From positions 1-31,027 of the IMG/VR virus record IMGVR_UViG_3300050120_000335: a stretch of 31,027 bases of DNA. One strand, given 5' to 3'. Source of the stretch: a virus. This document shows, one piece after another, positions 12,735 to 15,143 of this stretch. How positions within the stretch are numbered: position 1 is the stretch's first letter; every line of letters starts with the position of its first letter. The notes under the pieces are model-generated. The model ran no database searches. It was not told the origin of the DNA and saw only the letters and a program-made list of their open reading frames with translations. A program made the position numbers and the translations under genes.

Positions 12735-13499
12735 TTACACGCGAATCGTCCACGCGTCATCCGCGAGATTTTGATTCTCTACATACGCAGCGGGTAGCCA
12801 GCCATAGCCGTGATTTCCCCAATCGGCGCCCCAGGAATTGCGGAACTTATAATAGTCTCCGACGCCGTTGGTTCCGACCTTATGGTGGGTGTCGTAGCCC
12901 ACGATGCAGATGCAGTGACCCCCGATAAGCTGGTCATCGACCTGTGGCATCATTACGACGCCATTCTCGGCCGTGGCCTCACTCTCGAAACTTTCGTAGA
13001 CGGAAATCCCGAGGACGAACGGAAAGCCCTCAGCGAGACAGGTGCGGAACTCGTCGCGCCCTTTCAACCGCATATAGCTGCTGATCTTGTGCTTCGCGGC
13101 CTCGACCATGACGTCGGCCGGCGGCGCCGTGAAGAGCTTGGTCTCGTCGTATGGCCATAGCTTTTCCGGCGCGAGGCCGATCTGGTGCAGGACCTTGATG
13201 CCGTCCCTGATCTGGGCCCCGGAATCGGTATTGGTCGTCTTCTCGATCGCCCGTTCGTCGTAATAGAGTTGGAGCGGCGAGCCGACGAAATTGGGATGGA
13301 GGAAGCCGTAGGCGCCGGTGAGGCCGAAGCCGGTGCAGCAGCCGCTCTGGTCCTGGTCGCGGACCGCCTGGAACCGCGCGCTCAGGTCGGTCTTGTCCGG
13401 CAGCTTCTGCGGCTTGGCCGCGCCATAGGTGCGGTCGCGCAGGTCGGGAAGATCGGGCGACCAGCCATACTTTTTGATCTTGCGTGGTTGGATAGCCAT
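12735..13499 (-). CDS. Papain-like (C1 family) cysteine protease
   Basis: 254 residues from an ATG at 13499, with AAGGA seven bases upstream. The start KKYGWSPDLPDLRD is typical of C1-like peptidases of microbes and viruses. All active-site elements are visible: the oxyanion Gln49 and nucleophile Cys55 in DQDQSGCCTGF, His195 in GGHCICIVGYD, and Asn221 in FRNSWGADWGNHGYG. There is no signal peptide and no long pro-region. It may process phage proteins, act on host proteins, or be a virion component. The 410-base leader before it is unusually long for this genome. Confidence 0.9.
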   Translation of the reverse strand: MAIQPRKIKKYGWSPDLPDLRDRTYGAAKPQKLPDKTDLSARFQAVRDQDQSGCCTGFGLTGAYGFLHPNFVGSPLQLYYDERAIEKTTNTDSGAQIRDGIKVLHQIGLAPEKLWPYDETKLFTAPPADVMVEAAKHKISSYMRLKGRDEFRTCLAEGFPFVLGISVYESFESEATAENGVVMMPQVDDQLIGGHCICIVGYDTHHKVGTNGVGDYYKFRNSWGADWGNHGYGWLPAAYVENQNLADDAWTIRV

Positions 13500-13910
13500 C
13501 GATGTCCTTGGGGATGGGCGGCCAACGTGGACCCGCCGAGGTTCGCGGGCCTCGGCGGGTCTCCGTCGTGCGCGCACTCTCACCGAGTACGATCCCAGGC
13601 GATGTGGGGGCTCTGCCGAGGCCGCCATTTCGGGCGTCGGACAGTTCACCAGGACGTGCAACATCCACGCCTATCGCTCCCCGTCTTTCCGGGGCATGTC
13701 AGCGCTGTTCCGCCCAGGCGACCGTCGCCACCTTTGAACGCGAGGCAGAGCCCTCGTATGACGGCCATCGGCCGCCTCCGGGGTATGGAGCCCGGTCTCC
13801 TCGTGATCGTCTCTTGCGCAGCGGTACTCGATGGTCGGGACTAGCCGCGACCTGAGACGGGTGCGCCGTCTGACGATGCTTCCACCGACACTGCCGGCTT
13901 TCACGCTCCT
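13500..13910 (-). other. Long untranslated leader of the protease gene
   Basis: About 400 bases between the family promoter and the protease start without a convincing gene. One GTG-started frame (13897-13671) is Arg-rich, has AAGGAG only one base before the GTG, and is not accepted. A stem CCCGCCGAGG/CCTCGGCGGG (13532-13559) lies just upstream of the ribosome binding site and could attenuate expression. Confidence 0.5.
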
Positions 13911-13939
13911 TGTATGACCGCGTGCGCCTATGAGGTCAA
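13911..13939 (-). promoter_or_regulatory. Minus-strand promoter for the protease / HTH unit
   Basis: ATGTCGCGTTTC then TTGACC (13939-13934), 17-base spacer, CATACA (13916-13911). It is back to back with the plus-strand promoter at 13996. Confidence 0.68.
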
Positions 13940-13995
13940 GAAACGCGACATGTGGCAGCCCGGACAGAATTCTTCGAGTCAACGCGTTTTTGGCG

Positions 13996-14023
13996 TTGAC
14001 GAATGATCCGGGTGCTGTAGAAA
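13996..14023 (+). promoter_or_regulatory. Plus-strand promoter of the large RNA
   Basis: TTGACG (13996-14001), 16-base spacer, TAGAAA (14018-14023). The -35 is half of an inverted repeat GTCAACGC/GCGTTGAC (13978-14000), so a TTGAC occurs on each strand. Confidence 0.6.
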
Positions 14024-14029
14024 GACATC

Positions 14030-14899
14030 GTCGCTTGTGACTAACAGCCCTGGGCAACCAGGGTCAAAGGACCGGACGCTAAGCCGGTCCACCAGCCCTC
14101 GGGGTGGTGAAGCAAGCAGGCACCAAGGACCGCTCTAGCCAAGCGTCCGTCTGGTCTCGGCCAGGGGGATAGCGATGTAGTCGGGCCCCTCTCGATAGGC
14201 CGTGGTCGGGTAATTCCACCATGTCCGGCGTCCCGTGACAGGGACCGGGATAGGCATGTCAAACCGGCGAGTTCGCGAGGACTTAGGTGTAAGGGATCGG
14301 CGGGGCGACAGCCCTTTCCGGATAGTTCGAACGGCTTAGGACAGGCCGCCAGAGCGACTCCCAGATTCACAGGGTCGAGCCTACCGTCGGCGACGTCCTG
14401 GGGCATCGAGACCTCGTCAAGGGTCTACTGCGACGCTCGGTATTTTGTGGCCAAAAGCCATGAAGCCTTGTTGAGCGTGTCGCAATGGCAAACCCGGTCC
14501 GCCGAAAGGCGGACCAATCACAGGCAGTTGATGCACAAGCAAAAGCCTCAACGATCGTGTGTGATGAGATGGCTCCTGGCCGTGGTCTTCGGACGTGCGG
14601 TCGATCCCAAGCTCGCAAGGCACGGGATACGCTTCGAAAGCTTCCTTTGAGGGCTGGCCGGCTCTTGGTGGTAGTGGATGGGGTGAGTAGCACACGGTGA
14701 CGAGCGGATGCACCGCTCGGGCGATCTTCGGGTCGACCAGTAATGCGCCATTGGCGGAACAGAGGCCTCGAAAGGGGCCTGGACACCCAGGGGAACCCAT
14801 AATCCCTGAGGTTTCGTCGTGAAGGCCCAAGTGTCTCAAGCCTTCAAACAGGAGGGCCCTTCCGGTGCTGGATTCGTTCCGACCGTGGGGCCCTTTTTT
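14030..14899 (+). ncRNA. Candidate large structured non-coding RNA (about 870 nt), the only plus-strand unit
   Basis: This is bounded by a plus-strand promoter and a plus-strand terminator and has no frame with a ribosome binding site. Many local stems fold on this strand: CCCTGG-GCAA-CCAGGG (14048-14063), GGACCGG/CCGGTCC (14069-14090), GTCCC/GGGAC (14230-14245), GGTCCGCC-GAAA-GGCGGACC (14496-14515), CGAGCGG/CCGCTCG (14701-14719), CGATC-TTCG-GGTCG (14722-14735), CCTGG/CCAGG (14778-14791). Two GNRA loops and one UUCG loop are typical of tightly folded RNA. It interrupts no gene, so an intron is unlikely. Length, phage origin and nearness to tRNA genes resemble GOLLD and ROOL ornate RNAs; membership is not shown. 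Confidence 0.6.
14853..14899 (+). terminator. Plus-strand terminator of the large RNA
   Basis: AGGGCCC (14853-14859) pairs with GGGCCCT (14888-14894) and is followed on the plus strand by a run of T to 14899. The other strand lacks a comparable T run, so it acts mainly on plus-strand transcription, facing the convergent gene that stops at 14901. Confidence 0.78.
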
Positions 14900-14900
14900 G

Positions 14901-15143
14901 TTATGTCAGGAATGGCGCGGACTTGCGCGCGGACTCCATCGCCGCGACGGGACAGAGCCGCTGCTCCAGGGCCCGGAATGCTTTCCAGAGATCACCGCGC
15001 CAGGGCTTCGACGACACAAGCGCGAACTCAGCTTCGTCATCCTCCAGGATCACGCCGTCGGCGTCGATCGCATAGAAGCCCTCGGTGAGGAGCTTGCGGA
15101 ACTCCGCGCATGCGATCTCATTCGACGTCGGGCGCCGACCCAT
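14901..15143 (-). CDS. Small acidic/helical protein of unknown function
   Basis: 80 residues from an ATG at 15143 that overlaps the upstream stop (TAATG), hence coupled translation. The middle is EFRKLLTEGFYAIDADGVIL then EDDEAEFALVSSKP, followed by RGDLWKAFRALEQRL. Last gene of a three-gene operon of virion-type proteins, it ends two bases from the plus-strand terminator, a convergent arrangement. It resembles the small chaperone-like or accessory genes often found at the end of phage structural operons, but no family is recognised. Confidence 0.7.
   Translation of the reverse strand: MGRRPTSNEIACAEFRKLLTEGFYAIDADGVILEDDEAEFALVSSKPWRGDLWKAFRALEQRLCPVAAMESARKSAPFLT

What the first reader, a model, noticed from the sequence alone, without database searches (positions are those of the whole stretch)
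13996..14899. An ~870-nt ornate non-coding RNA transcribed against the rest of the region
A plus-strand promoter and a plus-strand terminator frame 870 bases with no gene but many stems, including GCAA and GAAA tetraloop hairpins and a C(UUCG)G hairpin. Everything else here is minus-strand. It lies between two tRNA clusters in a large phage. GOLLD and ROOL, large RNAs of phages and prophages often near tRNA genes, are the closest known analogues; it could be a divergent member or a new class.
Basis: partly seen in the sequence, partly recalled or inferred. Interest (0 to 1): 0.85.

Follow-up and report, generated by a model that had tools for sequence, protein, structure and literature searches.

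The report
Divergent GOLLD RNA of a jumbo phage
The stretch encodes a giant folded RNA of the known phage family called GOLLD (whose one solved member builds hollow RNA cages); it is a divergent member that scores below the database's reporting cut-off, and relatives with the same front-end structure sit unannotated in well-studied lab phages such as Caulobacter phage phiCbK, where its unknown function could be tested.

Summary
Window 14030-14899 (+) is a non-coding gene between two tRNA clusters, against minus-strand neighbours. It is a GOLLD RNA (Rfam RF02032): the whole 416-position model matches at 14428-14843 (80.9 bits, E 5e-21), below the curated cut-off of 150, so routine annotation misses it. 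81 of the 85 comparable Rfam pairs are standard pairs, 32 with both bases changed.
Syntenic homologues occur in Caulobacter bertelyviruses; others in Brevundimonas phage Bajun and, above the cut-off, in phiCbK, Karma and BL57, a Mesorhizobium and a Sinorhizobium phage.
The 5' region that Rfam does not model is also conserved: a covariance model of three 5' ends finds the same three-hairpin head 390-430 nt upstream in eight further lineages, with strong covariation, but in none of three other GOLLDs tested. A TTGAC-N16/17-TANANN promoter lies at a fixed distance from the head in nine loci.
Cage assembly is inferred from the published GOLLD structure; cargo and function are unknown. Useful consequence: phiCbK carries an unannotated GOLLD and its relative CcrRogue lacks it at the matching site, a natural plus/minus pair.

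The parts
13996..14023 (+). sigma-70-type promoter, TTGACG-N16-TAGAAA
   Evidence: TTGAC-N16/17-TANANN ends 8-9 nt before the CGCTT that opens the head in 9 loci of the clade; not significant in a single-sequence scan
14030..14899 (+). GOLLD RNA gene (whole predicted transcript, about 870 nt; start inferred from the promoter)
14031..14117 (+). 5' head: closing helix GCUU/AAGC around three hairpins (loops GCAA, ACGCUAAG, CUCG in this sequence)
   Evidence: model R1 (built from this and two other sequences) finds the head in all other clade members tested; covariation score 0.708 against 0.198 shuffled
14118..14427 (+). rest of the 5' domain
   Evidence: consensus fold over 5 phages: 34 of 91 pairs with compensatory change, 84.8% of cells paired against 74.7% shuffled
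14428..14843 (+). 3' domain, full-length match to Rfam RF02032 GOLLD
   Evidence: 80.9 bits, E 5.3e-21, model 1-416 of 416; 81 of 85 comparable pairs standard; covariation within the clade
14496..14515 (+). GAAA hairpin with 8-bp stem in the variable linker (the slot that holds a tRNA in phiCbK, Cp1R7A-A1 and L157)
   Evidence: read from sequence; linker position; tRNAs in the slot
14650..14665 (+). single hairpin in the P21 region, loop UGGCCG with a self-complementary GGCC
   Evidence: relatives CGGCCA in bertelyviruses
14834..14838 (+). UCUCA of the last conserved loop (position of L27 in GOLLD)
   Evidence: aligned to model consensus GUAaUCUCA; present in all homologues printed
14853..14899 (+). 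intrinsic terminator: AGGGCCC/GGGGCCCU stem with an inner stem, then a U tract
   Evidence: sequence; hairpin, usually with a U tract, follows UCUCA in homologues

Best explanation
This is a GOLLD RNA gene of a jumbo phage related to the Dolichocephalovirinae. SHOWN here by comparison: a two-domain structured RNA with conserved promoter position, 5' head and 3' domain, followed by a terminator hairpin. INFERRED from the published structure of another GOLLD (env-38, PMC12286853): the 5' domain forms the cap and the 3' domain the ring of a closed RNA-only homo-oligomer (14 copies in env-38), joined by kissing loops and A-minor contacts, with the variable linker facing the hollow inside. PROPOSED and untested: the RNA accumulates late in infection and its cage encloses, protects or sequesters parts of the translation machinery (tRNAs in members that carry one in the linker, or ribosomal parts). 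In this phage the linker carries a plain hairpin, so a covalently attached tRNA cannot be its cargo here. Probabilities: GOLLD homologue 0.95; forms an RNA multimer 0.6; translation-related cargo 0.25.
For: Full-length RF02032 match, E 5.3e-21, with 0 of 14 control genomes ringing. 81 of 85 comparable model pairs standard against 37.6 +/- 4.5 after shuffling partners, 32 with both bases changed from the Rfam consensus. Homologues: bertelyviruses RB23, CcrSC, CcrBL9 between the same tRNA clusters; Bajun, phiCbK, Karma, BL57; Cp1R7A-A1 and Phosso. The head model finds all of these, on the same strand and 390-430 nt upstream of the 3' domain, and nothing else in 165 kb. Promoter spacing conserved. 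Literature: GOLLD forms a 14-mer nanocage, is induced at lysis and is often near tRNA genes (PMC12286853).
Against: Score 80.9 is below Rfam's gathering cut-off of 150. A sequence-only HMM of the members above the cut-off finds the bertelyvirus copies (E 9e-9) but not the window's, so the link by sequence alone runs through those copies. No transcript data. The alignments were fitted to the structure. The P21 region has one hairpin where RF02032 has two (the site of two self-kissing loops in env-38), so the cage could differ. Functional steps rest on one solved structure and on gene neighbourhood.
Confidence: 0.85

Rival explanations
1. A new class of large RNA unrelated to GOLLD that only resembles it.
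For: Score below Rfam's cut-off; its 5' head is not detected in three other GOLLDs tested.
Against: The full 416-position model matches at 5e-21 with compensatory pair changes, and phages with the same head carry 3' domains above the cut-off (phiCbK 165, Cp1R7A-A1 193, Phosso 187 bits).
Confidence: 0.03
2. A decayed GOLLD pseudogene.
For: Lower score than the relatives; one P21 hairpin missing.
Against: 81 of 85 pairs intact, head, promoter and terminator intact; the single P21 hairpin is shared with the bertelyviruses and two metagenomic GOLLDs (L159, L040).
Confidence: 0.05
3. GOLLD, but acting as a monomeric or protein-bound regulator (for example binding ribosomes) rather than as an RNA cage.
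For: Ribosomes have been reported to bind GOLLD in pull-downs (cited in PMC12286853); the P21 contacts that join half-shells in env-38 are altered here.
Against: env-38 is a 14-mer down to 12.5 nM, and its intermolecular contacts covary (PMC12286853).
Confidence: 0.25
4. An accessory, possibly mobile tRNA-associated element with no important role for the phage.
For: Absent at the matching site of CcrRogue and not detected in Colossus, CcrPW, BL10 and several Brevundimonas phages; reported dispensable for phage production in one Lactobacillus brevis prophage (cited in PMC7567579).
Against: Strong structural constraint across divergent phages needs selection.
Confidence: 0.15

Closest known systems
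GOLLD RNA, Rfam RF02032
   Same: Full-length 3' domain, conserved loops (CAAAAG, GCAAAAG, GGGGAA-N3-AUAAUCCC, UCUCA), roughly 420 + 420 nt two-domain layout, phage genome, tRNA neighbourhood
   Different: Scores below the cut-off; one hairpin instead of two in the P21 region; no tRNA in the linker; transcribed against the neighbouring tRNA genes; own type of 5' head
GOLLD env-38 (cryo-EM 14-mer, PMC12286853)
   Same: Same 3' domain family, variable linker in the same place, 5' region of similar size
phiCbK / Karma / BL57 GOLLD (found here, unannotated in the phiCbK record)
   Same: Same head, same promoter position, same 3' domain; above the Rfam cut-off
   Different: A complete tRNA (Gly or Lys) in the linker; lies beside a permuted tmRNA gene
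ROOL RNA
   Same: Large phage RNA near tRNAs, forms a cage (PMC12286853)
   Different: No ROOL match in the window at E <= 10

Membership tests
GOLLD (RF02032) | Full-length match to the covariance model, significant | tested here: met
   E 5.3e-21, positions 1-416 of 416
GOLLD (RF02032) | Score at or above Rfam's curated cut-off (150 bits) | tested here: not met
   80.9 bits. This is a reporting threshold, not a biological feature; direct relatives with the same head exceed it: phiCbK 165, Cp1R7A-A1 193, Phosso 187
GOLLD (RF02032) | 3' domain secondary structure kept | tested here: met
   81 of 85 comparable pairs standard, 32 compensatory; clade covariation
GOLLD (RF02032) | Both hairpins of the P21 region (L21a, L21b) present | tested here: not met
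   One hairpin in the window, bertelyviruses and L159; L040 (227 bits, accepted by Rfam) also folds with one, so two are not required for family membership
GOLLD (RF02032) | Large, less conserved structured 5' region and variable linker | tested here: met
   linker 14484-14552
GOLLD (RF02032) | Encoded by phage or prophage, often near tRNA genes | tested here: met
   virus record, 20 tRNAs in the window, phage structural genes
GOLLD (RF02032) | Expressed during lysis | not testable with these tools
   needs strand-specific RNA-seq
GOLLD (RF02032) | Homo-oligomeric RNA cage | not testable with these tools
   I know it only for env-38 (PMC12286853)
ROOL / OLE / HEARO / RNase P / group I and II introns | Rfam covariance model match | tested here: not met
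   no match at E <= 10 in 13650-15000

The most novel reading that the evidence does not exclude
Alphaproteobacterial-phage GOLLDs form a distinct subtype with their own 5' cap domain (head of three hairpins) and, in the window's branch, a single half-shell contact hairpin, so that they build a cage of different size, symmetry or openness from the 14-mer of env-38, with a linker slot that is loaded with a swappable tRNA in some phages and with a plain hairpin in others.
Probability: 0.35. Interest if true: 0.6.

Novelty: new member of a known kind. Interest (0 to 1): 0.42.

Why it matters
GOLLD RNAs form very large natural RNA-only cages, and their function is open. This work places unannotated GOLLDs in cultured, tractable phages of Caulobacter, Brevundimonas and rhizobia (phiCbK above all), supplies a structural model of the 5' end that Rfam lacks, and points to a natural GOLLD-less relative (CcrRogue) with matching flanks. 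That makes the question 'what does GOLLD do' directly testable in a laboratory system.

Tried and rejected
Protein-coding readings of the segment: no Pfam or PHROG match for the ORFs tested. Other Rfam families (anti-hemB, mir-298, aceE-II): far below their cut-offs, chance. Viral-contig searches with the neighbouring proteins found no GOLLD-bearing relatives. The pattern GGGGAANNNATAATCCCY was mostly unspecific (103 stretches, of which L040 rang with the HMM and L104/L155 with Rfam). The first nhmmer run used unoriented loci and is void. MAFFT alone misaligned the first hairpin of the head, hence the covariance model from three sequences that align without a gap there. A sequence-only HMM of members above the cut-off mostly found tRNAs in the window, because those members carry a linker tRNA. 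I considered a 'lost L21a' claim as a hallmark of this branch and downgraded it because L159 and L040 also show one hairpin. Mycobacteriophage Bxz1 was not in the collection.

Full report
WHAT IS THERE. Window 13996-14899 (+) holds a promoter (TTGACG-N16-TAGAAA, 13996-14023), about 870 nt without a recognisable gene, and an intrinsic terminator (14853-14899). It lies between a cluster of 6 and a cluster of 14 tRNA genes, all on the minus strand; every window ORF with a PHROG match (tail assembly chaperone, tail terminator, minor tail protein, PhoH, a cysteine peptidase, head decoration and others) is also on the minus strand. ORFs inside the segment match no Pfam or PHROG family. The plus strand folds 3.3 sd better than shuffles, the minus strand 1.6 sd. 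Promoter and terminator mean nothing as single consensus matches; their weight comes from comparison.

IDENTITY. At gathering thresholds Rfam finds only tRNAs in the window. With permissive thresholds GOLLD (RF02032) matches 14428-14843 (+) over its full length, 80.9 bits, E 5.3e-21 (E 2.9e-23 in the one-genome search, 0 of 14 control genomes ringing); the cut-off is 150 bits. Of 94 model pairs, 85 have letters on both sides in the window; 81 are standard pairs (shuffled partners: 37.6 +/- 4.5), and 32 of them differ from the Rfam consensus on both sides. That alignment was fitted to the model, so the E-value and the independent homologues carry the weight.

HOMOLOGUES. blastn finds the RNA in eight Caulobacter phage and two Bertelyvirus records, at a position where nothing is annotated, lying between the corresponding tRNA clusters; all three examined ring with RF02032 at 104-120 bits. 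Of 16 phage genomes searched, 7 have GOLLD: the three bertelyviruses, Brevundimonas phage Bajun, and phiCbK, Karma and BL57, the last three above the cut-off. Mesorhizobium phage Cp1R7A-A1 (193 bits) and Sinorhizobium phage Phosso (187 bits) also carry it, as do five further IMG/VR contigs, two of them over 460 kb, a 372-kb contig and a 635-kb metagenomic phage. The phiCbK record annotates only the tRNA that sits inside the RNA.

THE 5' DOMAIN. Rfam models only the 3' domain. I built a covariance model (R1, 90 positions, 24 pairs) from the 5' ends of three sequences: the window, L159 and Bajun. Over 165 kb it finds, apart from its training sequences, only the bertelyviruses (E 3e-7 to 5e-6), L157 (4e-6), L158 (3e-4), phiCbK, Karma and BL57 (6e-4 to 1e-3) and L156 (0.03), each on the same strand and about 390-430 nt upstream of the 3' domain; then Phosso (2.5e-5) and Cp1R7A-A1 (9e-5), but not L155, L040 or L164, which are GOLLDs of another branch. 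Across 11 distinct sequences 92.2% of pair cells are standard (shuffled 63.9%), 65 cells have changes on both sides (shuffled 24.4), and the covariation score is 0.708 (shuffled 0.198; slid partners at most 0.173). The rest of the 5' domain, on a plain MAFFT alignment of five phages, has 34 of 91 pairs with compensatory change (shuffled 14.1) and a score of 0.374 (shuffled 0.218); the 3' domain gives 30 of 101 and 0.386 (shuffled 0.207). These two structures were derived from the same alignment, so the slid-partner control is biased in their favour.

TRANSCRIPTION UNIT. TTGAC[GC]-N16/17-TANANN ends 8-9 nt before the CGCTT that opens the head in the window, CcrSC, BL9, RB23, Bajun, phiCbK, Karma, BL57 and L159. 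UCUCA, the last conserved loop, is followed in these phages by a strong hairpin, in most of them with a U tract. The RNA therefore has its own promoter, and in the window it runs against its neighbours.

HOW IT PROBABLY WORKS. The one GOLLD with a solved structure that I could read about, env-38, is a closed 14-mer whose 5' regions form the caps and 3' regions the rings, with a variable linker inside; two self-kissing hairpins (L21a, L21b) and an A-minor contact join the half-shells (PMC12286853). The window RNA has both domains and the linker (14484-14552), so multimer formation is the best inference. Two differences bear on it. The linker holds a plain GAAA hairpin, whereas phiCbK-type phages, Cp1R7A-A1 and L157 hold a tRNA there, the anticodon differing (Gly or Lys) between phages whose RNA is about 99% identical. 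And the P21 region has one hairpin (14650-14665, loop UGGCCG, self-complementary GGCC) in place of two; bertelyviruses have CGGCCA there. Since L159 and L040 also fold with one hairpin, this is variation inside the family rather than a mark of this branch. My matching of these hairpins to L21a and L21b rests on the order of helices in the Rfam model and the text of the paper, not on a structural alignment. Function remains unknown; cargo related to translation is a guess from the company the RNA keeps (tRNAs, linker tRNAs, a neighbouring tmRNA in phiCbK and Bajun) and from reported ribosome binding (PMC12286853).

PRESENCE AND ABSENCE. phiCbK and CcrRogue share the flanks (83% and 76% identity), but the 1,155 nt of phiCbK between tRNA-Cys and the tmRNA that contain GOLLD are replaced by 215 nt in CcrRogue. 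RF02032 (stricter filters) and R1 find nothing in CcrRogue, BL10, CcrPW, Colossus, Kikimora or Bambus, so GOLLD is an accessory of this phage group; a very divergent copy cannot be excluded.

NOVELTY. New member of a known kind. The published survey searched INPHARED phages with RF02032 at 1e-5 (PMC12286853), so some of the cultured relatives are probably in its set; no paper in the library mentions GOLLD together with Caulobacter phages. What I have not seen described is the shared 5' head of this branch and the phiCbK/CcrRogue natural pair.

Noticed in passing
L020 2496-2814 (phiCbK), L023 2452-2764 (Bajun), and other Dolichocephalovirinae records: Permuted tmRNA genes (RF04321, above cut-off) in every Dolichocephalovirinae genome searched, with or without GOLLD; in phiCbK, Karma, BL57 and Bajun the tmRNA is divergently transcribed from just upstream of GOLLD. 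Annotated in Bajun, not in the phiCbK record.
   Followed up: partly
L018, L019, L020 1850-1923 (-): The tRNA inside the GOLLD linker has a Gly anticodon (tcc) in phiCbK and BL57 and a Lys anticodon (ctt) in Karma and similar phages whose RNA is about 99% identical to phiCbK's: an apparent anticodon swap.
   Followed up: partly
L160 versus L165: CcrRogue lacks GOLLD at the site matching phiCbK (1,155 nt against 215 nt between conserved flanks).
   Followed up: yes
L144/L156, L135/L158 (462- and 465-kb contigs), L163 (Phosso, 469 kb): GOLLD RNAs with the same head in three phage records over 460 kb.
   Followed up: partly
window 12735-13664 (-): Papain-family cysteine protease (PF00112, E 6e-13) encoded next to the RNA; the family matches begin about 70-90 residues into the ORF, so the true start may be internal.
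   Followed up: no
L040 11344-11427 (-): A match to the bacterial small SRP RNA just above its cut-off (42.3 against 40) about 470 nt upstream of the GOLLD 3' domain in a 372-kb phage contig, i.e. near the 5' end of its RNA.
   Followed up: no
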